Shown here: positions 34,907 through 61,108 of the stretch, in pieces | How the letters are laid out: each line of letters opens with the position of its first letter | How positions within the stretch are numbered: the first letter of the stretch is position 1 | Assembly (NCBI RefSeq): GCF_916618755.1 | Contig: NZ_CAKAKB010000001.1 | Location: 845,907-909,906, forward strand | Direction: 5' to 3' | DNA: 64,000 nt | Source: Actinotalea sp. Marseille-Q4924 | GTDB lineage: Bacteria > Actinomycetota > Actinomycetes > Actinomycetales > Cellulomonadaceae | Position numbers and translations under genes: made by a program | Notes under the pieces: model-generated | What the model saw: only the letters and a program-made list of their open reading frames with translations | Told to the model about the DNA's origin: nothing | Databases searched by the model: none

Positions 34907-35737
34907 TCAGGAGCCGCCCGGGTGGCCGTGCTCGTGCGGGTGCCCGTGGCGGTGACCGTCCTCGCGTGCCGGGGCGTCGTCGTGCTGGTGCGCACGGAGC
35001 GGCGCTGCGCCGTCCGGCGCCGTCCCGACGACCACCCGGACGACGTTGGCGCGTCCGGGGGTGTCCTTCGTGCCGGCCCCGATCCCGAACGTCTCCACCC
35101 GCATCCGGGGCAGGGGACCGCCGCGGACCGCGAGCGAGGTGACGAGGGCGACGCCCGTCGGCGTGGCGAGCTCCCCGTCGCCACCCGCCAGCACGTCCCA
35201 GCCCGGCGTGAGCGCGAGCACCGCCGGCGGCGGGACCGGCAGCGTCCCGTGGTGCGCGCGCACGGTGCCCGAGCCGAGCGCGACGGGGGAGACGACGACG
35301 TCGTCCACCTCGAGCGCCGCCACGCCCGCGCAGCACCCCACGACGTCGGCGATGGCGTCCAGCGCCCCGACCTCGTGGAAGTGGACGTCCTCCGGGGGCA
35401 CGCCGTGGACCCGCCCCTCCGCCCCGGCGAGCCGGGCGAACGTGCGCTGGGCGAGGTCGCGGACGTCGTCCGGCAGCGCTGCGGCGGCGAGCATCTCGCG
35501 GACGACCGTCCACGTCCGGTGCGGCGGGTCCGCCACGAGCACCTCGACGTCCACCTTCGCCGCCCGCAGGCCGGCCCGGACGACGTCGGCCCGGACGAGC
35601 CGGACGGAGCCCGGCAGCACGGCGTCGACCGCGTCCTGCAGCCGGGACAGGGGCACACCGGCGTCCACGAGGGCGCCGAGGAGCATGTCACCGGCGACGC
35701 CCGCGGACGCGTCGATCCAGAGCGTCCGCCCCGTCAC
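34907..35737 (-). CDS. larC: Nickel-pincer cofactor biosynthesis protein LarC, N-terminal half only
   Basis: A 276-aa protein. LarC inserts nickel into the pyridinium-dithiocarboxylate mononucleotide made by LarB and LarE. LarC1 features are clear: SAGVAGDMLLGALVDAGV near the N-terminus, VHFHEVGALDAIADVVG and ETFGIGAGTKD. The chain then ends in a His-rich tail (HRHGHPHEHGHPGG) that could bind nickel. The LarC2 half, fused by programmed frameshift in Lactiplantibacillus plantarum or in frame elsewhere, is absent: a convergent TetR gene starts 19 bases on. GTG 35737 overlaps the stop of larA, so the two are co-translated. Confidence 0.85.
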   Translation of the reverse strand: MTGRTLWIDASAGVAGDMLLGALVDAGVPLSRLQDAVDAVLPGSVRLVRADVVRAGLRAAKVDVEVLVADPPHRTWTVVREMLAAAALPDDVRDLAQRTFARLAGAEGRVHGVPPEDVHFHEVGALDAIADVVGCCAGVAALEVDDVVVSPVALGSGTVRAHHGTLPVPPPAVLALTPGWDVLAGGDGELATPTGVALVTSLAVRGGPLPRMRVETFGIGAGTKDTPGRANVVRVVVGTAPDGAAPLRAHQHDDAPAREDGHRHGHPHEHGHPGGS

Positions 35738-37014
35738 GTCGAGGGCAGCGCGCGCAGCCGGTGCAGGACCTCGCCGGCCTGCGGCACGACGAGCGTGTCC
35801 GGGTCCAGCGCCCAGGCCTCGGGGTCGACCGCGGCAGGGTCGAGGTAGTCGAGGTTCACGGAGCGGACCACGTCCTCGGGGATGCCCGTCGCGAGGGTCA
35901 CGGTGACGCGGCACTGCTCGCCGTGCTCGTGGTCGTACGTCCCGGCGCCGCGCAGGTGCGTGGAGTGGGCCAGGTCCCCCCACGGGGTGTCCTTGAAGCG
36001 GTCCCACTGCTTCACGAAGTAGTCGCGGCAGTGGTAGCCGATCCGCGCGATCTCGGGGTGCATCACCGAGATCTCGGTGATGTGCGGCGCGTAGAGGACG
36101 ACCTGCCCGCCGTCGGCGACGACGGGCTCGACCTTGTAGAAGCCCTTCGCGCCGGTCCACATGTCCTCGTACTTCTCCGGCACGAGGGACAGGACCCGCC
36201 GGACGGGTGCATCGAGGTAGCGCACGTGCGTCTCGGCGGAGACGTCGGCGGCCGCGGCCCAGGCCTGCTCGGGCCGGCCGAAGGCGGCGGCGTGCAGCTC
36301 GCCGCTCCCGGACCGGACGACGAGGCACAGCGCGTACCGGTCCCCGGGGACCAGCGAGGCGGCCTCGTCGATGAGCGCGCGGACCGGCGTGATGCCGCGC
36401 GTCCCGATGATCTCCACGCTCGAGATGAGCGCGCCGAGCCAGTGCGAGACGTTGATGACGTCCTTGGCGGAGATGCCGGGGAAGAGGTACTTGTTGCCGC
36501 CGGAGAACCCGACGACCTCGTGCGGGAAGACCGGCCCGAGGACGAGCGTGACGTCGTGCTCGACGACCGCACGGTTGATCCGCACGTCGACGGGTCGGAC
36601 CAGCCGGCCCTCGGACAGCTCGCCGAGTCGCTCCGCCCCGATCGTGCCGACGGACACGAACGTCTCCTCCTGCCACCACTCGTGGTTGAGGACCCGCATG
36701 CCCGGGTAGGTCTCCTCCAGCGCGCCCTCGGTGTAGCCGAGGTGGCGGGCGAGGTCGGACTCGCTCATCGGCTGGTGCGTGCCGAGCGCCACGAGCGCGG
36801 TCAGCTGCGTCACGCGGCCGGAGACGGCCGCGTGGAGGGCGCCGAGCAGGAGCGGAAGGGGGCAGCTGCGCGTCCCGTCCGGCACGACGACGCACAGGCT
36901 CCGGCCGTCCAGCGGCACCTGGGCCAGCTGCTCGGTGACGAAGGAGCGGACGGTGGCCTCGTCGAGCACGGCGGTGGGACCGCCGACCAGGGCAGCGGGC
37001 GGGGGAGTGCTCAT
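35734..37014 (-). CDS. larA: LarA-family nickel-pincer-nucleotide racemase/epimerase (proposed D-mannonate/D-gluconate 2-epimerase)
   Basis: A 426-aa protein. LarA-type enzymes invert a 2-hydroxy acid by hydride transfer to a nickel-pincer cofactor covalently held on a lysine. Matching positions are visible: DGTR (Arg48), GTH (His79), HEVVGFSGGNK with His165 and cofactor Lys175, and SHW with His191; spacing between His165, Lys175 and His191 equals that of His174, Lys184 and His200 in lactate racemase. The later segment reads WTGAKGFYK (Lys290) instead of the lactate-racemase YQxxK, so this is a divergent clade. Published LarA homologues include a D-gluconate 2-epimerase; neighbouring uxuB and gluconokinase point to that reaction. 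Regulated by the operator at 37058. Confidence 0.85.
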   Translation of the reverse strand: MSTPPPAALVGGPTAVLDEATVRSFVTEQLAQVPLDGRSLCVVVPDGTRSCPLPLLLGALHAAVSGRVTQLTALVALGTHQPMSESDLARHLGYTEGALEETYPGMRVLNHEWWQEETFVSVGTIGAERLGELSEGRLVRPVDVRINRAVVEHDVTLVLGPVFPHEVVGFSGGNKYLFPGISAKDVINVSHWLGALISSVEIIGTRGITPVRALIDEAASLVPGDRYALCLVVRSGSGELHAAAFGRPEQAWAAAADVSAETHVRYLDAPVRRVLSLVPEKYEDMWTGAKGFYKVEPVVADGGQVVLYAPHITEISVMHPEIARIGYHCRDYFVKQWDRFKDTPWGDLAHSTHLRGAGTYDHEHGEQCRVTVTLATGIPEDVVRSVNLDYLDPAAVDPEAWALDPDTLVVPQAGEVLHRLRALPST

Positions 37015-37057
37015 GCGCTCACTCTGGGCGGCCCCCGGGCGCGGTGCAAGGGCCTGC

Positions 37058-37081
37058 GGCAACACGTGGCAACCGGTTGTC
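37058..37081. promoter_or_regulatory. LacI-type operator 1 (larA-larC / HAD-GH3)
   Basis: GGCAAC-ACGT-GGCAACCGGTTGTC. A near-perfect palindrome is preceded by a half-site exactly 10 bases upstream. It lies between the divergent starts at 37014 and 37154 and can control both units. Confidence 0.8.
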
Positions 37082-37153: not shown

Positions 37154-38059
37154 GTGGCCCAGGCAGCCCCAGCACCGGCCGACGCGCTGGACGCCTTCCG
37201 GCCGCGGCACGACTTCTTCGTGGGCGTGGACTCCGACGGCTGCGCCTTCGACGCGATGGAGATCAAGCACAAGGAGTGCTTCACCCCCAACACCATCAAG
37301 CACTGGCGGCTGCAGGCGGTCTCGTCCGCCGCCCGCGAGACCGCGGAGTTCGTCAACCTCTACTCCACGCACCGCGGGCTCAACCGCTGGCGCGCCCTGG
37401 TGGAGGTGTTCGACCTGCTGCGTGAGCGGCCCGAGCCGGCGCGGCGCCACGTCGCCGTGCCCGCGGGCGACCGGCTGCGGGAGTTCATCACCTCCGGGAG
37501 GCCGCTGAGCACCGCGGGCCTGCGGGCGTACGCGGCCGAGCACCCCGACCCCGAGCTGGACCAGGCGCTGCGCTGGACCGACGGCGTGGACGCGGCCATC
37601 GCCGACATGGTGACGGGCGTGCCGCCGTTCACGGGCGTCCGGGAGACCCTCGCCCGCGCCGGTGAGCAGGCCGACGTCATGGTCGTGTCCGCGACACCCG
37701 TCGAGGCGCTCGAGCGCGAGTGGGGCGAGCACGGCCTCGCGGAGCTCGTCGACCTCATCGCCGGGCAGGAGATGGGCACCAAGGAGGACCACCTCCGCCA
37801 CGCCGCCGTCGGCCGCTACGACGCGGACCGGGTGCTCCTCGTCGGGGACGCACCGGGGGACCGGGCGGCCGCGGAGACGGCCGGGGTCCTCTTCTACCCG
37901 ATCCTGCCCGGGCGGGAGGACGAGTCCTGGCGCCGCCTGCACGACGAGGCGCTGGACCGCTTCTTCGCCGGGACGTACGCCGGCGCGTACGCCGACGCGC
38001 TGGCCGCCGAGTTCGCCGCCGTCCTGCCCTCGGTGCCCCCGTGGCACGAGCAGCCCTGA
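37154..38059 (+). CDS. HAD-superfamily hydrolase
   Basis: A 301-aa cytosolic HAD phosphatase-type protein. All four motifs are present: motif I GVDSDG (nucleophile Asp26, acid/base Asp28), motif II VVSAT, the lysine in GTKEDH, and motif IV LLVGDAPGD. A helical cap lies between motifs I and II, with the distinctive FDAMEIKHKECF following motif I. The substrate is probably a sugar phosphate, from context. GTG 37154 follows AGGAGA. It is transcribed with the GH3 gene from the promoter region carrying operator 1. Confidence 0.85.
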   Translation: MAQAAPAPADALDAFRPRHDFFVGVDSDGCAFDAMEIKHKECFTPNTIKHWRLQAVSSAARETAEFVNLYSTHRGLNRWRALVEVFDLLRERPEPARRHVAVPAGDRLREFITSGRPLSTAGLRAYAAEHPDPELDQALRWTDGVDAAIADMVTGVPPFTGVRETLARAGEQADVMVVSATPVEALEREWGEHGLAELVDLIAGQEMGTKEDHLRHAAVGRYDADRVLLVGDAPGDRAAAETAGVLFYPILPGREDESWRRLHDEALDRFFAGTYAGAYADALAAEFAAVLPSVPPWHEQP

Positions 38060-38139: not shown

Positions 38140-39864
38140 GTGGGTACCACCGTCGACCTGAGGGCCCTGCCCTACCGACTGCCCGACGAGGGTGTCGCGT
38201 GGGTCGAGGAGACCCTCGCCTCGATGAGCGTCGAGGAGAAGGTCGGACAGCTGTTCTTCAACCTCTTCCACTTCGGCGGCGACGCCTTCGGCGGGAACAC
38301 GCTGACGAACGAGGAGATCCTCGCCCGCTACCACATCGGGGGTGCGCGCTACCACGGCGGCAGCGCCGAGCAGGTGCAGGGCCTCATCAACGACCTCCAG
38401 CGCGCGAGCCGCATCCCACTGCTCGTGGCCGCGAACTGCGAGTCGGGCGGCAACGGCGCGTGCGCCGAGGGCACGTACATCGCGACCGGCGCCCAGTCCG
38501 CGGCGAGCGGCGGCGAGGAGGTCCCGTTCCGCACAGGCGTCGTGTCCGCGCGGGAGGCCGGCGCCCTCGGGGTGAACGTCAACTTCGCGCCGATCGTCGA
38601 CATCCTCACCAACTGGCGCAACACCATCGTCAACACGCGCGCCCACGGCACGACCGCAGACGACGTCATCCGGTCGACCGGCGCCAAGGCGCGCGGGATC
38701 CGCTCCGAGTCGGACATGATCGTCTGCATCAAGCACTTCCCCGGTGACGGCACCGAGGAGCGGGACCAGCACCTCGTGCTCGGCGTCAACGAGCTCCAGC
38801 CGCAGGAGTGGGACGAGTCGTTCGGACGGGTGTACCAGCACCACATCGACGAGGGCGTAGAGATGATCATGGCTGGGCACATCGCCCTGCCGCACTACCA
38901 GAAGCTGCTCGACCCCGGCCTCGAGGACGCCGACATCCTGCCGGCGACCCTCGCGCCGGAGCTGCTCCAGGACCTGCTCAAGACGCGCCTCGGGTACAAC
39001 GGGCTGGTCGTCACCGACGCGAGCCACATGCTCGGCATGACGGCGGCGATGCGACGCCAGGACTACGTGCCCCGGGCCATCGCGGCCGGCTGCGACATGT
39101 TCCTGTTCTTCAACGACATCGCCGAGGACTTCGGGTTCATGCTCGACGGCGTCCGGGACGGCGTCATCACCCCGGAACGCCTCGACGACGCGGTCCGGCG
39201 GGTCCTGGGCCTCAAGGCCAAGCTCGACCTCGCCGGCAAGAAGGAGCGGGGCGAGCTGGCCAAGGGTGCCGCGGACCTCGAGGTGATCGGCTGCGAGGAG
39301 CACCTCCGGTGGCGTGCCGAGGCGGCCGACGCGTCCATCACGCTCGTCAAGAACACCCTGGACCAGCTCCCCATCCGCCCCGAGACCCATCGGCGGCTGC
39401 GGCTGTACTACCTGTCGCAGGAGAGCGACGGCATCTACGCGGCCGGCGAGGGCACCCTGGGCACGCTCGTGAGCGAGCTGGAGAGCCGCGGCTTCGAGGT
39501 GACCGTCAACGACGGCGCCTCGCGCGTCAAGGGGCCGACGCTCGCGTACCGCGACGAGGTCGACGCCGCGCTGGTGGTCGCGAACGTCGTGGGCTACGCC
39601 GGCGAGAACAACTACCGGATCCGCTGGAAGGTCGCCATGAGCACCGACGTGCCCTGGTACGTCCACGAGGTGCCGACGGTCATGGTGTCGCTCAACTACA
39701 CGACGCACCTGCACGACGCGACCATGGTCAAGGCCTACATCAACGCGTACCACGACAACCCGGAGGCGATCCGGCAGGTCGTCGACAAGCTCATGGGGGA
39801 GTCGCCGTTCCGGGGCTCGTACGACGACCTCGTGTGGACTGAGAAGTGGCAGGCGCGCCTGTAG
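38140..39864 (+). CDS. Glycoside hydrolase family 3 (NagZ-like beta-hexosaminidase or phosphorylase)
   Basis: A 574-aa protein without signal peptide, so cytosolic. The NagZ-type layout is intact: substrate-binding KHFPG (Lys198-His199), Asp-His acid/base dyad in RDQH (Asp209, His211) at the same spacing as NagZ Asp174/His176, and nucleophile Asp293 in VVTDASHM. A C-terminal GH3_C-like domain follows. Enzymes with this dyad cleave beta-N-acetylhexosaminides, and some, such as Nag3 of Cellulomonas fimi, use phosphate. It probably splits an imported oligosaccharide. GTG 38140 follows GAAGGAG. A perfect hairpin terminator lies downstream. Confidence 0.85.
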   Translation: MGTTVDLRALPYRLPDEGVAWVEETLASMSVEEKVGQLFFNLFHFGGDAFGGNTLTNEEILARYHIGGARYHGGSAEQVQGLINDLQRASRIPLLVAANCESGGNGACAEGTYIATGAQSAASGGEEVPFRTGVVSAREAGALGVNVNFAPIVDILTNWRNTIVNTRAHGTTADDVIRSTGAKARGIRSESDMIVCIKHFPGDGTEERDQHLVLGVNELQPQEWDESFGRVYQHHIDEGVEMIMAGHIALPHYQKLLDPGLEDADILPATLAPELLQDLLKTRLGYNGLVVTDASHMLGMTAAMRRQDYVPRAIAAGCDMFLFFNDIAEDFGFMLDGVRDGVITPERLDDAVRRVLGLKAKLDLAGKKERGELAKGAADLEVIGCEEHLRWRAEAADASITLVKNTLDQLPIRPETHRRLRLYYLSQESDGIYAAGEGTLGTLVSELESRGFEVTVNDGASRVKGPTLAYRDEVDAALVVANVVGYAGENNYRIRWKVAMSTDVPWYVHEVPTVMVSLNYTTHLHDATMVKAYINAYHDNPEAIRQVVDKLMGESPFRGSYDDLVWTEKWQARL

Positions 39865-40108: not shown

Positions 40109-41680
40109 ATGACGTCCATCAGGACCTTTGCGCCCGCGGCCATCGCCGCCGTCGCCGCGCTCGCCCTGAGCGCGTGCGGTGGCGGCTCGGCCGCCCCCTC
40201 CACCGACACCCAGGACGGCCAGGAGGCCCAGGCGACCGGTGGCGCCGCCCGCGGCGGCACCCTCACCCTCGGCATCCTGCAGGAGCCGGCGTCCTGGGAC
40301 CCGGCTCAGGCCCACGTCGGGCACATGCTGCAGCCGTTCCAGGCCGCGTACGACACGCTGCTGCTCCGCGAGCCGGACGGCACCCTCGCGCCGATGCTCG
40401 CGACCGAGTGGGGCTACACCGACGACGCGAACACCGTGCTGTCGCTGGACCTGCGCACCGACGTGACCTTCTCCGACGGCGCGCCGTTCGACGCCGCGGC
40501 CGTGGTCGCCAACATCGAGCACTTCAAGGCCGACAACGGGCGCCAGGCGGCGCAGGCCGCCGCCATCTCCACGGTGACCGCGGTCGACGCCGACACGGTC
40601 GAGATCGCCCTGTCCTCCCCGGACCCCGCGATGGAGTACTACCTCAGCCAGGCCCTCGGCCTCATGGGTTCCCCCGCCGCGCTCGGCAGCGACGGGATGG
40701 ACCGGCTCCCCGTCGGCACCGGTCCGTACGTCATGGTCGCCGACCAGTCGGTCGTCGGCTCGCAGTACGTGTTCACCGCGCGGGAGGACTACTGGAACCC
40801 CGAGCTGCAGCGCTGGGACCAGATCACCATGAAGTTCCTCGCCGACGTGACGTCGCGGGTCAACGCCCTCGTCTCGGGCGAGGTCGACGCGGCGCTGCTC
40901 GACGCCACCACGTACCAGCAGGCGGAGGCAGCCGGCAAGGCGCTCGTCGAGTACGGCACCGACTGGCAGGGGCTGCTCCTCATGGACCGCGACGGCGCCT
41001 CCGACGAGGCGCTGGCCGACGTCCGGGTGCGCCAGGCGATCAACCACGCGTTCGACCGCGAGGCGATGCTGGCCCAGATCGGCGGCGGCAAGGGTGAGGT
41101 GACGAGCCAGGTCTTCGGCACGGCGACCGAGGGCTACGACGCCGAGCTCGACGACTACTACGCCTACGACCCGGAGAAGGCCAAGGAGCTCCTGGCCGAG
41201 GCCGGCTACGCCGACGGCCTGACCATCGAGATGCCGGTCATCACCCCCGGCGGCGAGACGATCATGACCTTCGTCACCCAGCAGCTCGCCGACGTCGGCA
41301 TCACGGTCGAGCAGACGTCCGCCCCGGCCGCCGACTACGTCGCCAACCTCGGCCAGGGCACGTGGGGCGCCGCCTGGTTCAGCCTCTTCCAGGGTCCGGA
41401 CTGGGTCGCCGTGCAGCAGATCATCTCCACCGACGCGCTGTACAACCCCTTCGACTCGGCCACGCCCGAGATCGAGGCGGCGATCGAGGTGCTGCGGGCC
41501 GGCGGCGACGACTCCGCGGAGGCGGCCGCCGAGATCAACCGGATCATCACGGAGGAGGCCTGGTTCGCGCCGTGGTTCCGGCCCAGCCAGCTCTACTTCC
41601 ACGACGCGGCCAAGGTCGTCGTGGAGCCGCAGATCCAGATGGCCGTGCCGGCCATCTACAACTACGCGCCGGCCTCCTGA
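40109..41680 (+). CDS. ABC transporter substrate-binding lipoprotein, family 5
   Basis: A 523-aa extracellular lipoprotein. The signal peptide ends in lipobox LSAC (Cys23) followed by a Gly/Ser/Thr linker. The mature part is a family-5 (SBP_bac_5) solute-binding protein: GGTLTLGILQEPASWDPA at the N-terminus, NTVLSLDLRTDVTFSDGAPF, GTGPYVMV and VNALVSGEVDAALLD. Family 5 includes binders of peptides, oligosaccharides and nickel chelates. Operator 2 upstream and the enzyme set suggest a uronate-containing oligosaccharide or glucuronide; a nickel complex for the LarA cofactor is the main alternative. AGAAGGA lies 7 bases before the ATG. Confidence 0.9.
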   Translation: MTSIRTFAPAAIAAVAALALSACGGGSAAPSTDTQDGQEAQATGGAARGGTLTLGILQEPASWDPAQAHVGHMLQPFQAAYDTLLLREPDGTLAPMLATEWGYTDDANTVLSLDLRTDVTFSDGAPFDAAAVVANIEHFKADNGRQAAQAAAISTVTAVDADTVEIALSSPDPAMEYYLSQALGLMGSPAALGSDGMDRLPVGTGPYVMVADQSVVGSQYVFTAREDYWNPELQRWDQITMKFLADVTSRVNALVSGEVDAALLDATTYQQAEAAGKALVEYGTDWQGLLLMDRDGASDEALADVRVRQAINHAFDREAMLAQIGGGKGEVTSQVFGTATEGYDAELDDYYAYDPEKAKELLAEAGYADGLTIEMPVITPGGETIMTFVTQQLADVGITVEQTSAPAADYVANLGQGTWGAAWFSLFQGPDWVAVQQIISTDALYNPFDSATPEIEAAIEVLRAGGDDSAEAAAEINRIITEEAWFAPWFRPSQLYFHDAAKVVVEPQIQMAVPAIYNYAPAS

Positions 41681-41687
41681 GCCGCAC

Positions 41688-41721
41688 GGGTGGGGCGAGG
41701 TCGACCGACCTCGCCCCACCC
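41688..41721 (+). terminator. Intra-operon stem-loop after the binding-protein gene
   Basis: GGGTGGGGCGAGG (41688-41700) pairs perfectly with CCTCGCCCCACCC (41709-41721); the stem can be extended by three pairs. It is followed by a run of C, not T. It lies between the binding-protein gene and the permeases, where such hairpins protect the upstream mRNA or partly stop transcription so that the binding protein is made in excess. Confidence 0.6.
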
Positions 41722-41758
41722 CCCCCACCCACTCCAGCCCACCGTCACGGAGCCCCGC

Positions 41759-50863: not shown

Positions 50864-50870
50864 CTCTGCC

Positions 50871-51808: not shown

Positions 51809-51852
51809 GGGTTCTCCTCCTGGGTCGGTCGACGCCGGGTCCGGCGGTCGGG

Positions 51853-53986: not shown

Positions 53987-55156
53987 ATGTCGGGAACGGT
54001 GCGGCTGGGGATCGTCGGGTTCGGGCAGCAGGGCGGGTTCTACGCCTCGCTCATCGCCCAGGGGATGACCCCGCACGTGGAGCTCGGCGCGATCTGCGAC
54101 ATCGACCCCGAGCGGCGCGCGGCCGCCGCCGCGGCGCACCCGGGCGTCCCGGTGCACGAGGACTACGAGTCGCTGCTCGACAGCGGCGACGTCGACGCGG
54201 TCGTCACCACGGTCCCGCACTACCTGCACCCGGAGATGGGCATCACGGCGCTGCGCCGCGGCGTCCACGCCCTCGTCGAGAAGCCCGCCGGCGTCTACAC
54301 CGCCCAGGTGCAGGAGCTGCTCGACGTGGCGCAGCAGCACCCCGACACGACCTTCGCGATCATGTTCAACCAGCGCATGAACCCGCTGTTCCGCGAGCTG
54401 CACGACATCGTCGCGCGCGGTGAGATCGGCCGGGTGCTGCGCAGCACGTGGACCATCACGACCTGGTGGCGGCCCCAGGGCTACTACGACTCCAGCGACT
54501 GGCGCGCCACCTGGGGTGGCGAAGGCGGCGGCGTGCTGGTCAACCAGGCCCCCCACCAGCTCGACCTGTGGCAGTGGATCTGCGGCGTGCCGACGGCGGT
54601 CGACGCCCGCCTGTCCTACGGCGTCAACCGGGACATCGCCGTCGAGAACGAGGTCACCGCCCTCGTCGACTTCCCCGACGGCGGGACCGGGGTCTTCGTG
54701 ACCTGCACGTACGACATCTCCGGCACCGACCGCCTCGAGATCCTCGGGGACCAGGGCAAGATCGTGGTGGAGGACAGCCGCCGCGCGACGGTCACCCGCC
54801 TGCGCCGGCCCGAGGCCGAGCTCAGCGCCACGATGGGCATGGACGACGTCGTCCGCCTCTTCAAGGGCGAGGTCGACCTCTCGACCCTGTACACCCAGGA
54901 GGTGCTGGAGTTCGAGTCGCCGTTCGGCCGGCAGCACGCCGACGTCCTGGAGAACTTCGCGCAGAGCGTCCTGCACGGCGTCCCCCTCGTGGCCCCCGGC
55001 GCCGACGGCATCCACGGCGTGCGCCTCGCGAACGCGATCCACCTGTCCGCCTGGACCGGGGAGCGTGTCCCGCTCGCGTTCGACGACGCCGAGTACCTGC
55101 GGCTCCTCAACGAGCGCATCCGCGACGAGGGCCGGTTCCCCGAGCGCACCCCGTGA
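53987..55156 (+). CDS. Gfo/Idh/MocA-family oxidoreductase (389 aa)
   Basis: Rossmann start LGIVGFGQQGGFYASL, EKP motif ALVEKPAGV, and C-terminal GGGVLVNQAPHQLDLWQW. The region WTITTWWRPQGYYDSSDW is typical of glycoside-type members. It probably oxidises a sugar or glycoside using NAD(P). ATG 53987 follows GAGAGGA; a GTG one codon earlier is possible. It is co-translated with the MFS gene (GTGA overlap) under operator 6 and is distantly related to the 355-aa dehydrogenase on the other strand. Confidence 0.9.
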   Translation: MSGTVRLGIVGFGQQGGFYASLIAQGMTPHVELGAICDIDPERRAAAAAAHPGVPVHEDYESLLDSGDVDAVVTTVPHYLHPEMGITALRRGVHALVEKPAGVYTAQVQELLDVAQQHPDTTFAIMFNQRMNPLFRELHDIVARGEIGRVLRSTWTITTWWRPQGYYDSSDWRATWGGEGGGVLVNQAPHQLDLWQWICGVPTAVDARLSYGVNRDIAVENEVTALVDFPDGGTGVFVTCTYDISGTDRLEILGDQGKIVVEDSRRATVTRLRRPEAELSATMGMDDVVRLFKGEVDLSTLYTQEVLEFESPFGRQHADVLENFAQSVLHGVPLVAPGADGIHGVRLANAIHLSAWTGERVPLAFDDAEYLRLLNERIRDEGRFPERTP

Positions 55157-56427
55157 ACCGCCGTCGCCCCGGTCCGCACGACGGGCGCGGCGAGCGGATC
55201 TGGACCCGCGACGTCGTGCTCGCGACCGCTGTCAGCATGTGCGTGGCGTTCGTGTTCTTCCTGCTCACCGTCGTCATGGCCGGGTACGCCGGGGAGCGCC
55301 TCGGCGCGTCGGACGGCGTGGCCGGAGCCGCGGTCGGGCTGTTCGTCCTCGGGGCGCTGCTGGCGCGACCGGTCGCCGGTCCGCTCGTCGCCCGGCTCGG
55401 CACGCGGCCGGTCCTGCTCGGAGGCCTGGCGCTGTACCTCCTCGCGGGGCTGGCGTACCTGCCGGCCGACCGGGTCGAGCTGCTGCTCCTCGTCCGCGTC
55501 GTCCACGGCATGGGCATGGGGATCGCGCACACGGCCGTGACGACCACCGTCATGACGGCGCTCCCGGCCACCCGGCGGGCGGAGGGCACCGGCTACTTCT
55601 CCGCGGGCAGCAACGTCGGTGCGGCCCTGGGTCCGCTCGTCGCCCTGACGCTGGGTCGCACCGCCGGCCACGAGGCGGTGTTCTGGCTCGCGGCCGCGGT
55701 GTCCGCGCTGGCGCTCCTCCTGGCCCTGCCGGTGCGCGGTCCCGGACGGATGCCGCCGGCCGCGGGCAGCGCGTGGACGCCCCGGCGGCTGGTCGAGGTG
55801 CGGGTCGTCCCGATCGCCTCGGTGATGCTCCTCGTCGGCGCGGCCTTCGCCGGCGTCCTGACCTACCTGGGCCCCTACGCGGACGAGCGCGGCCTGACCG
55901 CCGCCGCGTCCCTGTTCTTCCTCGTGCACGCGGCGGCGGCCGTCGTCTCCCGACCCCTGGCCGGCCGGCTGCACGACCGGCGCGGCGAGAACGTCGTGCT
56001 CTACCCCGCGTTCGTCTCCATGGCGGCCGGGGCTGTGCTGCTCGCCGTGGCGACCACGCCGACGGCGCTCCTCGTCGCCGCCGCGTGCTTCGGGCTCGGC
56101 ATGGGCACGCTGCAGAGCTCAGCCCAGGCCGTCGCGGTCTCCCTCGTGGAGCCGGCCCGCGTGGGCGTCGCCACGTCGACCTTCTTCCTCCTCCTCGACC
56201 TCGGCACGGGGGCGGCGCCACTCGTCCTCGGCCTCGTCGTCGCCGGCGTGGGGTACGGGCCGATGTACCTGGGCCTCGCGGGCCTCCTGCTCCTCGCCGG
56301 CCTGCAGTACCACCTGCTGCACGGACGCCTCGCGCGCCCGCCCGTGACGCTCACGCGCTCCGCGGTGACGACGGAGGCAGCTCCGACGGCGGGGCGCGAG
56401 CCGCTGCTGGCGGTGCGCCATGACTGA
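55153..56427 (+). CDS. MFS transporter
   Basis: A 424-aa membrane protein with twelve helices. The loop 2-3 motif is RPVAGPLVARLGTRPVL, repeated in the second half as RPLAGRLHDRRGENVVL. It resembles AraJ/YfcJ-like sugar-type MFS proteins. It lies between a sugar oxidoreductase and gluconokinase under operator 6, so import of a uronate or aldonate, or release of a by-product, is likely. GTG 55153 overlaps the preceding TGA, and it overlaps the kinase gene by eight bases. Confidence 0.88.
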   Translation: MNRRRPGPHDGRGERIWTRDVVLATAVSMCVAFVFFLLTVVMAGYAGERLGASDGVAGAAVGLFVLGALLARPVAGPLVARLGTRPVLLGGLALYLLAGLAYLPADRVELLLLVRVVHGMGMGIAHTAVTTTVMTALPATRRAEGTGYFSAGSNVGAALGPLVALTLGRTAGHEAVFWLAAAVSALALLLALPVRGPGRMPPAAGSAWTPRRLVEVRVVPIASVMLLVGAAFAGVLTYLGPYADERGLTAAASLFFLVHAAAAVVSRPLAGRLHDRRGENVVLYPAFVSMAAGAVLLAVATTPTALLVAAACFGLGMGTLQSSAQAVAVSLVEPARVGVATSTFFLLLDLGTGAAPLVLGLVVAGVGYGPMYLGLAGLLLLAGLQYHLLHGRLARPPVTLTRSAVTTEAAPTAGREPLLAVRHD

Positions 56428-58000
56428 CCTCCTTGCCGGGCCCGGCCGCGCCGCCGGGACCCGCGCCGGCATGGGGGTGCTCCTCGGCGTGGACGTCGGG
56501 ACGACCGGCGTGAAGGTCGCGGCCTTCGGCCTGGACGGACCGACCCGGCACGTCGAGGTGTGCGAGTACCCGCTGCTCGAGCCCGCGCCCGGCCACCAGG
56601 TGCAGGACCCGGCCGTGCTCGTCGCGGCCGTGCTCTCCGCGGTCGCGCGCTGCGTCGCCGTCGTCGGCCGCGACGCCGTCGTCGGCGTCTCGCTCAGCAC
56701 CGCGATGCACGGCCTCGTGGGCGTCGCGGCCGACGGCGCCCGGGTGACGCCGCTGCTCACATGGGCCGACGGGCGTGCCGCGGGCGTCGTGGCGGAGCTG
56801 CGCGCGGACGGTGTCGCGGCGGAGCTGCACAGGGTGACGGGTACGCCCGTGCACCCGATGTCGCCGCTGGTCAAGCTCGCCTGGCTGCGCCGGCACGAGG
56901 CGGCCGGCACGGGCCGCGTGACCCGGTGGCTGGACCTCAAGGCGCTCGTCGTCGCGGCGCTCACCGGCGTCGCCGTGACGGACCTGTCGTCCGCGTCCGG
57001 CTCCGGCATGCTCGACATGGCCACGGGGCGCTGGAGCCCCCTCGCCCTCCAGATCGCCGGGGTGTCGTCCGACCGGCTGCCCCCGGTCCTGCCGCCCACC
57101 CATGCGCTGCCCCTCAGCGCCGCCGCGGCGTCGTCGACCGGCTTGCGGGCCGGCACCCCCGTGGTGCTCGGCGCAGCGGACGGCCCTTTGGGCAACGTCG
57201 GGACCGGGGCGGTCGCGCCCTGCTCGCTCGCCCTCTCGCTGGGCACGTCCGGCGCGGTCCGCATGGTCGTGACCGAGCCGCCCCGCGACCTTGACCCCGC
57301 CCTGTTCTGCTACGCGCTCGACGAGGGGTCGTGGGTCGTCGGGGGCGCGGTGAGCAACGGCGGGATCGTCGCGCGGTGGGTCGGGCGGACCCTGATGGGG
57401 CAGGGCTCGCCCGGCGGCACCGGTGACGGCACGGGCGACCCCACCGTCAGCGACGCCGCCGTCCTCGCCCTCGCCGCGACGGCGCCCCCGGGGTCCGACG
57501 GGCTCGTGATGCTCCCGTACCTCCTGCCGGAGCGGTCGCCGCTGTGGGACGCCGACCTCACCGGCGCCTACCTGGGGCTGCGCCGCCGCCACACCGCTGC
57601 GCACCTGGCGCGTGCCGCGCTGGAGGGCGTGGCGATGCAGCTCGGTCTCATCGCGAGCCGCGTCGACGCCGTCCACCCCGTGCAGGACGTCACGGCAACC
57701 GGTGGCACCCTCCGCTCGCCGCTGTGGCGGCACCTCGTCACCGCGGCGCTCGGCAGGCCGATGGCGGTCGTCGGGGCCGCGGAGGGCACCGCCCGCGGGG
57801 CGGCGGCGGTGGGGCTCGTCGGTCTCGGGCTCGCCGCCGGCCTCGGCGAGGCCCTGGACCTGCTGCGTGACCCGCTCGCGTCGTCGCAGCCCGTCCACCC
57901 GGAGCCGGAGCTCGTCGCCGCGGCGGTGGCGACGCGGTCGCGCACCGGCGAGCTGCTGGCGGCCCTCGACGTGGCCCGGGGGCTCTTCCCCGCCCCGTGA
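56420..58000 (+). CDS. gntK: Gluconokinase (FGGY family)
   Basis: A 526-aa sugar kinase of the FGGY family. Phosphate-1 motif DVGTTGVKVAAF, STAMHGL, LTWADGRA, GAADGPLGNVG and GTSGAVRM match GntK-type gluconokinases; xylulokinase is less likely because of the STAMHG and ADGPLGN motifs. It phosphorylates D-gluconate to 6-phosphogluconate, the substrate of the gnd product encoded next. Member of the unit under operator 6. Confidence 0.87.
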   Translation: MTDLLAGPGRAAGTRAGMGVLLGVDVGTTGVKVAAFGLDGPTRHVEVCEYPLLEPAPGHQVQDPAVLVAAVLSAVARCVAVVGRDAVVGVSLSTAMHGLVGVAADGARVTPLLTWADGRAAGVVAELRADGVAAELHRVTGTPVHPMSPLVKLAWLRRHEAAGTGRVTRWLDLKALVVAALTGVAVTDLSSASGSGMLDMATGRWSPLALQIAGVSSDRLPPVLPPTHALPLSAAAASSTGLRAGTPVVLGAADGPLGNVGTGAVAPCSLALSLGTSGAVRMVVTEPPRDLDPALFCYALDEGSWVVGGAVSNGGIVARWVGRTLMGQGSPGGTGDGTGDPTVSDAAVLALAATAPPGSDGLVMLPYLLPERSPLWDADLTGAYLGLRRRHTAAHLARAALEGVAMQLGLIASRVDAVHPVQDVTATGGTLRSPLWRHLVTAALGRPMAVVGAAEGTARGAAAVGLVGLGLAAGLGEALDLLRDPLASSQPVHPEPELVAAAVATRSRTGELLAALDVARGLFPAP

Positions 58001-58018: not shown

Positions 58019-58042
58019 GGCAACGCGTGGCAACCGCTTGCC
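58019..58042. promoter_or_regulatory. LacI-type operator 7 (gnd-larE-larB)
   Basis: GGCAAC-GCGT-GGCAACCGCTTGCC, 62 bases before gnd and just after the gluconokinase stop. It gives the gnd-larE-larB genes their own repressor-controlled promoter. Confidence 0.8.
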
Positions 58043-58103: not shown

Positions 58104-59540
58104 ATGTCCGCACGCGCGCAGATCGGTGTCACGGGGTTGGCGGTGATGGGTCGGAATCTGGCTCGGAACTTCGCCCGGAACGGGTTCACGGTGGCGGTGC
58201 ACAACCGTTCGGTGGACAAGATGCGGTCGTTGGTGGCGGATCACGGTGCTGAGGGTGATTTCGTGGGTGCGGAGTCGTTGGAGGAGTTCGTGGCGGCGTT
58301 GGAACGCCCCCGCAAGGTGGTGGTGATGGTGAAGGCCGGTGGGCCGACGGATGCGGTGATCGATGAGCTGGTGCCGTTGCTGGAGGCCGGGGACATCGTG
58401 ATCGATGCGGGGAACGCGCACTTCCCGGACACCATCCGCCGGGAGGCGGCGTTGGCGCAGCACGGACTGCACTTCGTCGGCAGTGGGGTGTCCGGTGGTG
58501 AGGAGGGTGCGCTGCTGGGTCCGTCGATCATGCCGGGGGGGTCGCGGGAGTCCTATGAGACGTTGGGGCCGATCCTGGAGCGGATCTCCGCGAAGGTGGA
58601 CGGGGTCCCGTGCTGCACGTATGTGGGTCCGGATGGTGCGGGGCACTTCGTGAAGATGGTGCACAACGGTATCGAGTACGCGGACATGCAGCTGATCGTG
58701 GAGGCGTACGACCTGCTGCGCCAGGGCCTGGGGGCCAGTGCGGGGGAGATCGGGGAGATCTTCGCGGCGTGGAACACCGGTGACCTGGAGTCGTTCCTGA
58801 TCGAGATCTCCGCGGAGGTGCTGGGTCACACGGACCCGGTGACCGGTGGGGCGTTCGTGGACGTGGTCCTGGACCAGGCCGAGCAGAAGGGCACCGGGCG
58901 GTGGACGGTGCAGAACGGTCTGGACCTGGGCGTCCCGATCACCGGGATCGCCGAGGCCACGTTCGCCCGGGCCCTGTCCGGGTCGGTCCCGCAGCGCGAG
59001 GCCGCGGTGGGGGTGCTGCCGGCTCACGCGGGCACGTGGGAGGTCCCGGACCGGGACGCGTTCGTGGAGAGCGTGCGGCGGGCGTTGTACGCCTCCAAGG
59101 TGGTGGCGTACTCCCAGGGGTTCGACCAGATCGCCGCCGCGTCCGCGGAGTACGGGTGGGACATCGACCGGGGTGCGATGGCGCGGATCTGGCGGGGTGG
59201 GTGCATCATCCGGGCCAGGTTCCTGGACCGGATCACCGAGGCCTACGAGCGCCGCCCGGACCTGCCGTTGCTGCTGGCGGACCCGTACTTCACCGCCGCG
59301 GTCGCCGACGGGGTCCCCGCGTGGCGGTCGGTCGTGGCGTCCGCGGCGTTGAACGGGGTCCCGACCCCGGCGTTCTCCTCCTCCCTGGCCTACTACGACG
59401 CGGTCCGCGCCCAGCGCCTGCCGGCGAACCTCATCCAGGCCCAACGGGACTACTTCGGCGCCCACACCTACCGCCGCACCGACCGCCCCGGCACCTTCCA
59501 CACCCAGTGGACCACCGACCGGACCGAGGTCACGGCGTGA
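58104..59540 (+). CDS. gnd: 6-phosphogluconate dehydrogenase, decarboxylating (NADP type)
   Basis: A 478-aa enzyme converting 6-phosphogluconate to ribulose-5-phosphate, CO2 and NADPH. Nucleotide motif GLAVMGRNLARN, NADP-type HNRS, VGSGVSGGEEGA, catalytic lysine in GHFVKMVHNGIEY and the C-terminal YFGAHTYRR are all present. The first two thirds use many TTG, GGT and G-ending codons, unlike neighbours, which strongly favour C-ending codons; the last 50 codons return to the local pattern. This suggests transfer or gene conversion. GGAGG lies 9 bases before the ATG. It overlaps larE (GTGA). Confidence 0.95.
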   Translation: MSARAQIGVTGLAVMGRNLARNFARNGFTVAVHNRSVDKMRSLVADHGAEGDFVGAESLEEFVAALERPRKVVVMVKAGGPTDAVIDELVPLLEAGDIVIDAGNAHFPDTIRREAALAQHGLHFVGSGVSGGEEGALLGPSIMPGGSRESYETLGPILERISAKVDGVPCCTYVGPDGAGHFVKMVHNGIEYADMQLIVEAYDLLRQGLGASAGEIGEIFAAWNTGDLESFLIEISAEVLGHTDPVTGGAFVDVVLDQAEQKGTGRWTVQNGLDLGVPITGIAEATFARALSGSVPQREAAVGVLPAHAGTWEVPDRDAFVESVRRALYASKVVAYSQGFDQIAAASAEYGWDIDRGAMARIWRGGCIIRARFLDRITEAYERRPDLPLLLADPYFTAAVADGVPAWRSVVASAALNGVPTPAFSSSLAYYDAVRAQRLPANLIQAQRDYFGAHTYRRTDRPGTFHTQWTTDRTEVTA

Positions 59541-60406
59541 CCGTCGGTCACGTGGCCGACCTCGCGCCGGCCGACACCGCCGTCGTCGACCGGGTCGCGG
59601 CGGGGCTCGTCGCGGCCGTCGGCGCCGGCCGCCTGGGCGTGGCGTTCTCCGGGGGCGTCGACTCCTCCGTGCTGCTCGCGCTGGCGGTGCACGCCCTGGG
59701 GGCGGCGCGGGTCGTGGCCGTCCTCGGGGTGTCCCCGAGCCTCGCCGACGACGAGCGGCGGGCGGCCCACGACGTCGCGCGCGTCATCGGTGCCCCCGTC
59801 GTGGAGGTCCGCACCGCCGAGGGCGACGACCCGGACTACCGGCGCAACGGCCCGGACCGCTGCTACTTCTGCAAGCGGGAGCTGTTCGCCACGATCGACC
59901 GCGCGCTCGCGCAGGCGCACGGCCTCACCGCCGTGGCCTACGGGGAGAACGCCGACGACGCCCGCCGCCCCGACCGTCCGGGCAGCCGGGCCGCGTCGGA
60001 GCACGCCGTCCTGCGGCCGCTCGCCGAGGCAGGCCTCGACAAGGCGGCGGTGCGACGCCTCGCGCGTGCCTTCGCGCTGCCGAGCGCCGACAAGCCGGCG
60101 TCGCCGTGCCTGGCGTCGCGCATCCCGCACCATGAGGAGGTCACCCCCGAGAAGCTGGCCCAGGTCGACCGCGCGGAGTCCGCGCTGCGCCGGCTCGGGC
60201 TCGGCGACGTGCGGGTGCGGCACCACGGCGACGTCGCCCGGCTCGAGGTCCCGGTGGAGGACGTCGCGGCCGTCGCCGGCGCGGCCCTGCGCGAGGAGGT
60301 CCTGCGGGCGGTGCGCTCCGCGGGGTTCCGCTTCGTGGCGGTGGACCTCGCGGGCATCCAGTCCGGGGCCTTCACCCTGCCCTTGGTCAGCGCTCGCCAT
60401 GGCTGA
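59537..60406 (+). CDS. larE: Nickel-pincer cofactor sulfur transferase LarE
   Basis: A 289-aa PP-loop protein. LarE adenylates and then adds sulfur to the LarB product. PP-loop SGGVDSS (residues 38-44), RCYFCKREL (Cys109, Cys112), YGENADD and SPCLASR (Cys191) are present. Cys191 matches the sacrificial cysteine of the Lactiplantibacillus plantarum enzyme; together with the CxxC pair it forms the three-cysteine set associated with [4Fe-4S] LarE proteins. GTG 59537 overlaps the gnd stop, so it is co-translated with a sugar enzyme. Confidence 0.92.
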   Translation: MTVGHVADLAPADTAVVDRVAAGLVAAVGAGRLGVAFSGGVDSSVLLALAVHALGAARVVAVLGVSPSLADDERRAAHDVARVIGAPVVEVRTAEGDDPDYRRNGPDRCYFCKRELFATIDRALAQAHGLTAVAYGENADDARRPDRPGSRAASEHAVLRPLAEAGLDKAAVRRLARAFALPSADKPASPCLASRIPHHEEVTPEKLAQVDRAESALRRLGLGDVRVRHHGDVARLEVPVEDVAAVAGAALREEVLRAVRSAGFRFVAVDLAGIQSGAFTLPLVSARHG

Positions 60407-60418
60407 CAGGCTGCCCGC

Positions 60419-61108
60419 ATGACGGCCGACCATCGCGGCTGGGCGCCGCCCGAGGAGCTCGCCGAGTACGCGACCCTCGACCACGATCGACTCGCGCGCC
60501 GCGGGCTCGCCGAGGCGGTGCTGTGCGACGGCAAGACCGTCGAGCACCTCCACGGCATCGCCGGTGAGCTCGTGGCGCGCGAGTCCCGCACCCTCTTCAC
60601 CCGGGTCCGCGAGGACCAGGTCGACGTGCTCCTCAAGGAGCTCCCCGGGGCGACGTACGACCCGCTAGCCCGGCTCGTCGCGTGGCCCGGGGAGCCCCCG
60701 GAGCCGACCGGCGGGCTCGTCGTCGTCGTCGCCGCCGGGACGTCCGACCTGCCGGTGGCGCGGGAGGCCGCTCTGACGGCCCGCCACCTGGGCCGGGAGT
60801 GCCGGACCGTCACCGACGTGGGCGTCGCCGGGCTGCACCGGATCCTCGGGCGGCTCGAGGTGCTGCGCGAGGCGCGCGCCGTCGTCGTCGCCGCGGGGAT
60901 GGACGGCGCCCTGCCGGGCGTGGTGGCCGGCCTCATCTCCGCGCCGGTGATCGCGGTGCCCACCTCCGTCGGCTACGGCGCCGCGTTCGGTGGGCTCGCG
61001 CCCCTGCTCACGATGCTCAACGCGTGCGCGCCGGGGGTCGCGGTCGTCAACATCGACAACGGCTACGGCGCCGGCCACCTCGCCGCGCAGATCGCCGCCC
61101 CGGTCTGA
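60419..61108 (+). CDS. larB: Nickel-pincer cofactor biosynthesis protein LarB
   Basis: A 229-aa protein. LarB carboxylates nicotinic acid adenine dinucleotide and hydrolyses it to the dicarboxylated mononucleotide. The C-terminal PurE-like domain is clear: VVVAAGTSDLPVAREAA, DVGVAGLHRIL, AAGMDGALPGVVAGL and VIAVPTSVGYGA. The N-terminal 100 residues contain the family's VLCDGKTVEHL and TRVRED. It follows larE by 12 bases in the gnd-larE-larB unit. Confidence 0.93.
   Translation: MTADHRGWAPPEELAEYATLDHDRLARRGLAEAVLCDGKTVEHLHGIAGELVARESRTLFTRVREDQVDVLLKELPGATYDPLARLVAWPGEPPEPTGGLVVVVAAGTSDLPVAREAALTARHLGRECRTVTDVGVAGLHRILGRLEVLREARAVVVAAGMDGALPGVVAGLISAPVIAVPTSVGYGAAFGGLAPLLTMLNACAPGVAVVNIDNGYGAGHLAAQIAAPV

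What the first reader, a model, noticed from the sequence alone, without database searches (positions are those of the whole stretch)
34907..61108. Proposed new glucuronate pathway: nickel-pincer epimerase replaces mannonate dehydratase
The locus encodes UxaC (glucuronate to fructuronate) and UxuB (fructuronate to mannonate) but no UxuA, KDG kinase or KDPG aldolase. It does encode a LarA-family epimerase, gluconokinase and 6-phosphogluconate dehydrogenase. A C2 epimerisation of D-mannonate to D-gluconate joins the two halves exactly and sends glucuronate carbon into the pentose phosphate pathway with NADPH yield. Seen directly: the gene set, LarA residues His165, Lys175 and His191, and shared operators. 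Known: LarA-family enzymes epimerise 2-hydroxy acids, and a D-gluconate 2-epimerase has been reported among them. Inference: the joined pathway.
Basis: partly seen in the sequence, partly recalled or inferred. Interest (0 to 1): 0.93.

Follow-up and report, generated by a model that had tools for sequence, protein, structure and literature searches.

The report
Nickel enzyme reroutes glucuronate breakdown
This actinobacterium lacks both known kinds of mannonate dehydratase and instead carries a gene cluster, marked by one repeated operator sequence, whose nickel-cofactor enzyme is predicted to turn mannonate into gluconate, so that glucuronate would likely be broken down through the pentose phosphate pathway.

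Summary
The gene set is real: UxaC, a UxuB-like reductase, a gluconokinase-like FGGY kinase, Gnd, a LarA-family epimerase and LarB/LarC/LarE in one 26-kb locus. The 99.99%-complete genome has no UxuA and no ManD; its one KDPG aldolase adjoins galactonate dehydratase elsewhere. A palindrome (GGCAACCGGTTGCC, up to 1 mismatch) occurs 7 times in the genome, 6 of them here; the 7th heads a unit with a glucuronide-transporter-like gene.
LarA has the catalytic residues and the E-V/W signature of D-mannonate/D-gluconate epimerases; its best solved relative is GntE2 (4NAR). In a 344-genome class sample, LarA of this type goes with UxaC (14 of 17) and never with UxuA (0 of 17).
New here: the sister LarA group 18, left untested by its describers, is fused to a gluconokinase in other phyla, which predicts its reaction; and the locus gnd matches a second genomic gnd at 1434 of 1437 bases.
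The route itself is not new: it was proposed for Thermotoga in 2012, and the epimerase activity was shown in 2020. What is new is a UxuA-less actinobacterial version, support for the role of the actinobacterial LarA group, and the fusion. No reaction was tested.

The parts
34907..35737 (-). larC (LarC1 half only, with a His-rich C-terminal tail; no LarC2 domain)
   Evidence: Pfam Ni_insertion 1-235 of 375; TIGR00299 over cut-off; LarC2 query finds no match here
35734..37014 (-). larA homologue, predicted D-mannonate/D-gluconate 2-epimerase; overlaps larC by 4 bases
   Evidence: only Lar_N match in the genome; best PDB match 4NAR; E-V/W signature
37068..37081 (.). predicted LacI operator between larA and the HAD/GH3 genes
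37154..38059 (+). HAD-like hydrolase (weak match), role unknown
   Evidence: 20.2 bits, under the cut-off of 23.8; frame read
38140..39864 (+). glycoside hydrolase family 3
   Evidence: Pfam PF00933
39969..39982 (.). predicted LacI operator upstream of the ABC transporter
40109..45356 (+). SBP_bac_5-type ABC transporter: binding protein, permease, one frame holding permease plus ATPase, second ATPase; substrate not resolved
   Evidence: Pfam; PDB matches of the binding protein mixed: peptide, nickel, sugar
45411..45424 (.). perfect predicted operator upstream of lacI
45456..46469 (+). LacI-family regulator
   Evidence: Pfam LacI plus Peripla_BP
46480..46493 (.). predicted LacI operator upstream of uxaC
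46525..47934 (+). uxaC, glucuronate isomerase
   Evidence: NCBIfam equivalog over cut-off
47931..49328 (+). uxuB-like mannitol-dehydrogenase-family reductase, predicted fructuronate reductase
   Evidence: best PDB match 4im7 YdfI, 244 bits against 231 for a mannitol dehydrogenase; 36% identical to E. coli UxuB; cut-offs not reached
50948..53744 (-). two TIM-barrel sugar isomerase-like genes around one GFO/IDH/MocA oxidoreductase; role unknown
   Evidence: Pfam
53825..53838 (.). predicted LacI operator in the divergent TIM/GFO promoter region
53987..56427 (+). GFO/IDH/MocA oxidoreductase and MFS transporter
   Evidence: Pfam
56420..58000 (+). FGGY kinase, predicted gluconokinase
   Evidence: best NCBIfam model TIGR01314 317 bits, under cut-off; best PDB match 3gbt gluconate kinase, 270 bits against 140 for the next
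58029..58042 (.). predicted LacI operator upstream of gnd
58104..59540 (+). gnd, 6-phosphogluconate dehydrogenase; 3 of 1437 bases differ from the second gnd at C3:740 kb
   Evidence: NCBIfam over cut-off
59537..60406 (+). larE, sulfur transferase of nickel-pincer cofactor synthesis
   Evidence: TIGR00268 over cut-off
60419..61108 (+). larB, carboxylase of nickel-pincer cofactor synthesis
   Evidence: NF033503 over cut-off

Best explanation
The locus likely encodes a glucuronate-degrading pathway in which a nickel-pincer (LarA-family) enzyme, predicted to flip C2 of D-mannonate to give D-gluconate, stands in for the mannonate dehydratase UxuA that the genome lacks. Predicted steps: glucuronide is imported and cleaved; UxaC isomerises D-glucuronate to D-fructuronate; the UxuB-like enzyme reduces it to D-mannonate; LarA, loaded with a cofactor made by LarB, LarC and LarE, epimerises it to D-gluconate; the FGGY kinase makes 6-phosphogluconate; Gnd oxidises and decarboxylates it to ribulose-5-phosphate. 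Shown: gene identities, absence of UxuA and ManD, shared operator sequence, conserved neighbourhoods, active-site residues. Inferred: every reaction, the binding of LacI to the operators, and the order epimerase before kinase.
For: No UxuA in the genome. The three MR_MLE-family matches are galactonate dehydratase, MenC and enolase, so no ManD. One operator: 6 of 7 genomic sites lie in the locus; the 7th heads an apparent unit of a cytidylate-kinase-like gene, a symporter whose best model is the E. coli glucuronide transporter (391 bits, cut-off 528) and a GH3 gene. LarA: catalytic and cofactor residues complete, loop E166-V167 and W286 as in the mannonate-active groups; 11 of 12 comparison LarAs read F at the loop and 10 of 12 read Y in place of W (signature from PMC7583248). 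Class sample of 344 genomes: UxaC in 14 of 17 LarA genomes against 38 of 327 others; UxuA in 0 of 17. Of 44 searched genomes whose larA locus holds uxaC, 41 lack UxuA. Of 80 larA loci, 45 hold uxaC, 47 uxuB, 17 gntK and 10 gnd; all 17 gntK loci also hold uxaC. UxuA, KdgK, Eda/DgoA or Edd homologues appear in 3 of 80 larA loci, none of which holds uxaC, but in 5 of 8 regions around uxaC of UxuA genomes (4 of 8 without counting UxuA itself), and none of those 8 has gntK or gnd. The sister LarA group 18 is fused to gluconokinase in other phyla.
Against: No reaction was measured. C. glutamicum GntE1, the tested enzyme of what is probably the same group, has a KM of 120 mM for D-mannonate, and its authors suspected another native substrate. 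The UxuB-like gene and the kinase fall under the curated cut-offs, and the UxuB-like gene scores higher with a D-arabinitol dehydrogenase model. 36 of 80 larA loci have neither uxaC nor uxuB within 5 kb; contig ends explain few, since 28 of the 64 loci with 5 kb on both sides lack them. 3 of 17 LarA genomes in the class sample lack UxaC, and 3 of 44 relatives also have a UxuA-family protein. Among UxaC genomes the exclusion of LarA and UxuA is modest (0 of 14 against 11 of 38, Fisher p 0.025, relatedness not corrected). gntK is seen in only 17 of 80 larA loci, two of them weak (36% and 27% identity). Saccharobesus litoralis, which has the fusion, also has a mannonate dehydratase gene (PMC7953866 passage), so there the epimerase is added, not substituted. 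KDG kinase, Edd and gluconate dehydratase were not searched in the own genome.
Confidence: 0.84

Rival explanations
1. Same pathway, other order: the kinase phosphorylates D-mannonate and LarA epimerises 6-phospho-D-mannonate to 6-phosphogluconate, as shown with cell extracts of Lactobacillus suebicus.
For: Those two activities were demonstrated in L. suebicus, genes unknown (PMC6978723 abstract and passages). The very high KM of GntE1 for free mannonate would fit. The kinase is under the gluconokinase cut-off.
Against: GntE1, GntE2 and LarAH15 act on unphosphorylated D-mannonate in vitro (PMC7583248, PMC11770544). In other phyla the partner is a GntK/IdnK-type gluconokinase over its cut-off, another kinase family: two unrelated gluconokinase-type kinases paired with LarA favour gluconate as the kinase substrate.
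Confidence: 0.1
2. LarA works on an aldarate or another uronic-acid derivative (for example D-glucarate to D-mannarate, as suggested for GntE1), beside a separate fate of mannonate.
For: Suggested by the discoverers from the high KM and the uronic-acid gene context of group 19 (PMC7583248 discussion passage).
Against: The genome has no glucarate-dehydratase-type enzyme among its three MR_MLE matches; UxaC and UxuB make mannonate, not aldarates; no known mannonate dehydratase would take it further; the kinase and Gnd fit gluconate.
Confidence: 0.05
3. Canonical route with an unrecognised mannonate dehydratase: mannonate goes to KDG and then to the genome's single KDPG aldolase; LarA serves something else.
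For: A KDPG/KDPGal aldolase exists at C6. 27 of 52 UxaC genomes of the class sample have neither LarA of this type nor UxuA over its cut-off, so other solutions exist. KDG kinase was not searched.
Against: The aldolase adjoins galactonate dehydratase, so it most likely belongs to galactonate breakdown; neither known mannonate dehydratase family is present; the larA, uxaC and gnd-larE-larB units carry the same operator.
Confidence: 0.05

Closest known systems
Thermotoga maritima UxaR-regulated gnd-uxaRED-gntEK hexuronate genes (Rodionova et al. 2012, not held; PMC3750489 passages; PMC6978723 passages)
   Same: Uronate isomerase, fructuronate reductase, LarA-family GntE, gluconokinase and Gnd in one hexuronate network; mannonate proposed to enter pentose phosphate metabolism through gluconate.
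   Different: Thermotoga also keeps a kdgA-kdgK-uxuB-uxuA operon under UxaR and has UxaE for galacturonate, and its uxaC is assigned to another regulator (KdgR); here UxuA is absent, the regulator is LacI-type and NPN-cofactor genes lie in the cluster.
LarAH19/GntE1 of Corynebacterium glutamicum and LarAH20/GntE2 of T. maritima (PMC7583248, passages and sections 7 and 8)
   Same: LarA-family enzymes with the hexonate signature, shown to convert D-mannonate to D-gluconate; GntE2 (4NAR) is the best solved relative; group 19 has a uronic-acid gene context.
   Different: GntE1's native substrate was left open; the present locus supplies the missing neighbours and argues for mannonate. Direct identity to GntE1 was not measured here.
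LarAH group 18, NCBIfam NF052594 'putative hexonate epimerase'
   Same: Best NCBIfam model for the window LarA (152 bits); same E-V/W signature; the other half of the hexonate-type branch in the tree.
   Different: Window LarA is far under the cut-off of 500. Group 18 members elsewhere are fused to a GntK/IdnK-type gluconokinase.
Lactobacillus suebicus galacturonate pathway (PMC6978723, abstract and passages)
   Same: Isomerase-route top half joined to 6-phosphogluconate metabolism; redox-neutral.
   Different: There mannonate kinase acts first and 6-phosphomannonate is epimerised; genes not identified.
Canonical E. coli UxaC-UxuB-UxuA-KdgK-Eda pathway
   Same: First two steps.
   Different: Mannonate dehydratase is absent; no KDG kinase or KDPG aldolase was found in the locus.

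Membership tests
D-mannonate/D-gluconate 2-epimerases of the LarA superfamily (GntE) | LarA N-terminal domain | tested here: met
   PF09861, 76.5 bits over cut-off 23.3, single match in the genome
D-mannonate/D-gluconate 2-epimerases of the LarA superfamily (GntE) | Residues equivalent to LarA D72, R75, H108, H174, K184, H200, K298 | tested here: met
   D46, R49, H80, H165, K175, H191, K290 (residue list from PMC7583248)
D-mannonate/D-gluconate 2-epimerases of the LarA superfamily (GntE) | Loop E-V/S after the catalytic His and W in alpha-11 | tested here: met
   E166-V167 and W286 (signature). Of the 12 comparison rows 10 read F-F or F-M with Y, L156 reads F-V with W, and L146 has the signature itself. 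The alpha-14 feature was not checked.
D-mannonate/D-gluconate 2-epimerases of the LarA superfamily (GntE) | Measured epimerase activity | not testable with these tools
   needs purified holo-enzyme
LarAH group 19 (C. glutamicum GntE1) | Sequence clustering with GntE1 | not tested
   GntE1 sequence not obtained (not among the 120 listed hits or)
LarAH group 18 (NF052594) | Score over the NCBIfam cut-off | tested here: not met
   152.2 against 500
Canonical UxuA-type glucuronate pathway | Mannonate dehydratase (UxuA or ManD) | tested here: not met
Canonical UxuA-type glucuronate pathway | KDG kinase | not tested
   not searched in the genome; none among the Pfam matches of the locus
Thermotoga-type GntE-GntK-Gnd route | Uronate isomerase, epimerase, gluconokinase and Gnd in one regulated set | tested here: met
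   genes, kinase under its equivalog cut-off; shared operator; regulator binding itself is inferred
UxuB fructuronate reductase | Curated-level match | tested here: inconclusive
   family domains met, 36% identity to E. coli UxuB, cut-off not met and D-arabinitol dehydrogenase model scores higher

The most novel reading that the evidence does not exclude
A nickel-pincer bypass of the Entner-Doudoroff half of uronic acid breakdown is a widespread pathway. In Actinomycetota a LarA enzyme has displaced UxuA next to uxaC. In Gammaproteobacteria, Verrucomicrobiota and Lentisphaerota LarAH group 18, left untested by its describers, is fused to a gluconokinase, giving a bifunctional enzyme that turns mannonate straight into 6-phosphogluconate. 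This settles the physiological substrate of two orphan nickel-enzyme groups.
Probability: 0.7. Interest if true: 0.78.

Novelty: new variant of a known kind. Interest (0 to 1): 0.63.

Why it matters
Two groups of nickel-pincer enzymes (18 and, probably, 19) have had no settled physiological substrate. A UxuA-less genome with a one-operator locus, the pairing with uxaC in many actinobacterial genera, and gluconokinase fusions in other phyla all point to D-mannonate/D-gluconate. The route would send uronic acids into pentose phosphates with balanced redox cofactors, which matters for pectin and hemicellulose bioconversion. It would also make nickel supply a condition for growth on glucuronate, which is easy to test.

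Tried and rejected
Structure prediction of LarA from the 16-row alignment was poor (mean pLDDT 60.5, residues 264-426 mostly under 50), so no fold search was made. The ABC transporter could not be assigned: PDB matches mix peptide, nickel and sugar binders; a nickel importer is possible but unproven. C. glutamicum GntE1 was not among the 120 listed hits of either LarA search. The positional operator list (30 sites in 22 of 89 loci) kept only some central tetranucleotides; the full count there is 48 sites against a mean of 2.2 for 199 shuffled palindromes, 2 of which reached 48 or more. The aldarate reading and the hidden-dehydratase reading were weighed and put low (see rivals). Literature searches for a LarA-gluconokinase link or a LarA-uxaC link found no paper with both terms in the held library, which lacks most subscription papers. 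Rows dropped before counts: 13 of 30 LarA matches (E 1e-23 or weaker) were left out as other LarA groups; of these, 9 genomes were looked at, 8 lacking the hexonate signature and one (G376) having it; 4 (G118, G167, G185, G313) were not looked at. In one search, 2 of 19 UxuA matches were under the cut-off and left out. The three class searches each report 344 genomes under the same handles and are taken to be the same set. The E. coli queries (E up to 1e-8) can miss distant KdgK or Edd proteins.
Full report
The observation. The window lies at C1:845907-909906 of a 3.64-Mb genome (6 contigs, 99.99% complete) with 74.9% G+C in the window. Its LarA is closest to those of Actinotalea and Cellulomonas, so the host is taken to be an actinobacterium. 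Family searches and frame reading place larC, larA, an HAD-like gene, a GH3 gene, an SBP_bac_5-type ABC transporter, lacI, uxaC, a uxuB-like gene, TIM-barrel and GFO/IDH/MocA genes, an MFS gene, an FGGY kinase, gnd, larE and larB between 34907 and 61108. A PQQ-repeat protein at 49403-50872(-) interrupts the set. larA/larC, uxaC/uxuB and gnd/larE overlap by 4 bases (coordinates), as translationally coupled genes do. The frames scanned in the locus gave no UxuA, KDG kinase or KDPG aldolase match.

Is the missing step missing from the genome? UxuA (PF03786) has no match, while the same search rings in 5 of 14 control genomes, E. coli and B. subtilis among them. The other mannonate dehydratase family, ManD, belongs to the MR_MLE superfamily: its C-terminal domain gives three matches, which are galactonate dehydratase (580 bits over 311), o-succinylbenzoate synthase and enolase. 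A KDPG-aldolase-family gene exists but directly follows the galactonate dehydratase, so it most likely serves galactonate.

One operator. A 14-base palindrome, GGCAACCGGTTGCC, with at most one mismatch, occurs at 7 places in the whole genome: 6 in this locus, at 37068, 39969, 45411, 46480, 53825 and 58029, each just upstream of a gene start (coordinates). The seventh lies at C3:699312. It stands about 100 bases before a cytidylate-kinase-like gene, which is followed at once by a GPH-family symporter whose best model is the E. coli glucuronide transporter (391 bits, cut-off 528) and then by a GH3 gene. Thus larA-larC, uxaC-uxuB, the GFO-MFS-kinase unit and gnd-larE-larB carry the same predicted operator as a unit with a glucuronide-type transporter. 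The palindrome also recurs in relatives: 48 sites in 89 loci against a mean of 2.2 for 199 shuffled palindromes, though 2 of the 199 reached that count. That LacI binds these sites is inferred.

The epimerase. The window LarA is the only Lar_N match of the genome. Its best solved relative is 4NAR (201 bits; next 34 bits), which PMC7583248 identifies as GntE2 of T. maritima, a D-mannonate to D-gluconate epimerase (passages, and sections 7 and 8, read). Residues D46, R49, H80, H165, K175, H191 and K290 match the catalytic and cofactor residues listed there. Loop residues E166-V167 and W286 match the signature that the paper gives for groups 18, 19 and 20. Of 12 other LarA proteins fetched for comparison, 10 read F-F or F-M with Y, one (L156) F-V with W, and one (L146) turned out to carry the hexonate signature itself. 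In a 57-row tree the signature proteins form one side of a branch with support 100/100; its two halves are the actinobacterial set (88/98) and a set of 28 that holds all the kinase-fused proteins (100/99). The window protein is far under the group-18 cut-off (152 against 500). It is probably group 19, that of C. glutamicum GntE1, but the GntE1 sequence was not obtained and this was not tested. In the control list C. glutamicum rings for UxaC and LarC but not for UxuA; it did not ring for Lar_N either, so that control genome lacks GntE1 or that search missed it.

Phylogenetic profile. In 344 genomes drawn from the class (completeness floor of 90 asked for), UxaC occurs in 52, LarA of the window's type (E below 1e-160) in 17 (13 weaker LarA matches left out), and UxuA over its cut-off in 17 (2 weaker ones left out). 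LarA goes with UxaC: 14 of 17 against 38 of 327 (Fisher p 3e-10; without the own genome 13 of 16, p 1.6e-9). LarA never goes with UxuA: 0 of 17. Within the 52 UxaC genomes, 14 have LarA, 11 have UxuA, none has both, and 27 have neither (p 0.025). Relatedness is not corrected for. One further UxaC genome (G376) holds a group-18 LarA (585 bits), which the count leaves out; the 19-kb stretch around it shows no uxaC, gluconokinase or gnd homologue. In 7 of the 14 genomes the uxaC and larA matches lie 162 to 315 bases apart, in 3 (the own genome among them) 5 to 10 kb apart, and in 4 they are far apart or on other contigs. In two UxuA genomes (G086, G095) uxuA sits directly beside uxaC instead.

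Neighbourhoods. All 17 gntK loci hold uxaC; 15 of the kinases are 48 to 61% identical to the window's, two only 36 and 27%; 19 of the 45 uxaC loci have gntK or gnd. Within 5 kb of larA, 44 of 80 have uxaC or uxuB and 36 have neither; among the 64 loci with at least 5 kb on both sides the numbers are 36 and 28. Homologues of E. coli UxuA, KdgK, Eda or Edd, or of the own DgoA, were found in 3 of the 80 loci, none of which holds uxaC. In 8 regions around uxaC of UxuA genomes such a homologue appears in 5 (in 4 if UxuA itself is not counted), and neither gntK nor gnd in any. UxuA was searched in 44 genomes whose larA locus holds uxaC (45 loci given, one genome not held): 41 lack it.

A gene fusion in other phyla. 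The plasmid of Saccharobesus litoralis CCB-QB4 encodes one protein with a GntK/IdnK-type gluconokinase domain (180 bits over 114) followed by a group-18 LarA (619 bits over 500). It lies among a LacI regulator, a larE-like gene (30% identity), larB, a tagaturonate epimerase gene, gnd and uxaC. Catenovulum adriaticum has the same two genes side by side, overlapping by one base, with larC, a larE-like gene, larB and uxaC nearby. Of the 120 best relatives of the fusion protein, 18 carry both domains by precomputed Pfam; source names among these are Saccharobesus, Opitutus and Lentisphaeria. Three fused proteins were scanned and all three pass both cut-offs. The fusion label changes 5 times on the tree, at least 4 times by its well-supported branches, so fusion or splitting recurred. 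Group 18 was only hypothesised to act on a hexonate (PMC7583248). A covalently attached gluconokinase predicts that the hexonate pair is mannonate/gluconate. Some databases already call such proteins 'D-mannonate epimerase' (names), so the name is not new; I found no paper in the held library that has both gluconokinase and lactate racemase or both uxaC and lactate racemase. S. litoralis also has a mannonate dehydratase gene (PMC7953866 passage), so in that species the epimerase does not replace it.

Two further oddities. First, the locus gnd and a second gnd at C3:740 kb differ at 3 of 1437 bases; the match covers the coding sequence with one base before and three after, and the flanks are unrelated; a third, partial 6PGD match lies at C1:23.6 kb. 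Gene conversion that keeps a dedicated and a general copy alike, or a recent copy, would explain this. Second, the locus LarC has only the LarC1 half, with an HFHEV motif and a His-rich tail, while a second LarC gene at C2 keeps the LarC2 half and lacks that motif (my reading of the sequence; the motif is recalled). LarC2-domain matches occur in 32 of 91 relatives' loci searched, but not in the window nor in the closest relative L020. Nickel insertion may thus be split over two unlinked half-working genes here.

What is known and what is not. Rodionova et al. 2012 proposed mannonate epimerisation to gluconate and entry into the pentose phosphate pathway for T. maritima (paper not held; read through PMC6978723 and PMC7583248 passages; operons described in PMC3750489 passages). 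The activity was shown for GntE1 and GntE2 in 2020 and for LarAH15 in 2024 (PMC7583248, PMC11770544, passages). A cousin route with the kinase first was shown in L. suebicus extracts (PMC6978723, abstract and passages). The locus is therefore a new variant of a known kind: a UxuA-less, LacI-associated, actinobacterial form. The added values are the physiological context for the actinobacterial LarA group and the fusion evidence for group 18. The weakest links are the UxuB-like gene and the kinase, both under curated cut-offs, the high KM of GntE1, and the untested order of epimerase and kinase.

Noticed in passing
58104-59540 and L142:4707-6143 (C3:740 kb): Two gnd genes in the genome differ at 3 of 1437 bases, the match ending at the coding sequence borders with unrelated flanks: looks like gene conversion or a very recent copy recruited into the regulon.
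   Followed up: partly
34907-35737 and L141:6971-8362 (C2): LarC appears split over two unlinked genes: the locus copy keeps the LarC1 half, the C2 copy keeps LarC2 and lacks the HFHEV motif of LarC1; 32 of 91 relatives' loci have a LarC2 domain near larA.
   Followed up: partly
L143:9527-11296 (Saccharobesus litoralis plasmid): Gluconokinase-LarA fusion protein, seen in 18 of the 120 best relatives; source names include Saccharobesus, Opitutus and Lentisphaeria.
   Followed up: yes
L019:4813-4826 onward (C3:699312): Seventh genomic copy of the operator, heading a cytidylate-kinase-like gene, a glucuronide-transporter-like GPH symporter and a GH3 gene, so the regulon reaches outside the window.
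   Followed up: partly
50948-55156: Two xylose-isomerase-like TIM-barrel genes and two GFO/IDH/MocA oxidoreductases at a shared operator; TIM1 homologues recur in 10 and GFO2 homologues in 14 of 80 larA loci. A role in opening glucuronides through a keto intermediate is possible.
   Followed up: no
L143:12834-13517 and L144:13736-14422: Membrane genes with weak matches, under the cut-off, to the NicO nickel-transport family close to larB in the marine gluconokinase-LarA clusters; possible nickel transporters.
   Followed up: no
class sample, 27 of 52 UxaC genomes: More than half of the UxaC genomes of the class sample have neither the window-type LarA nor UxuA over its cut-off, so other uronate routes remain to be named.
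   Followed up: no
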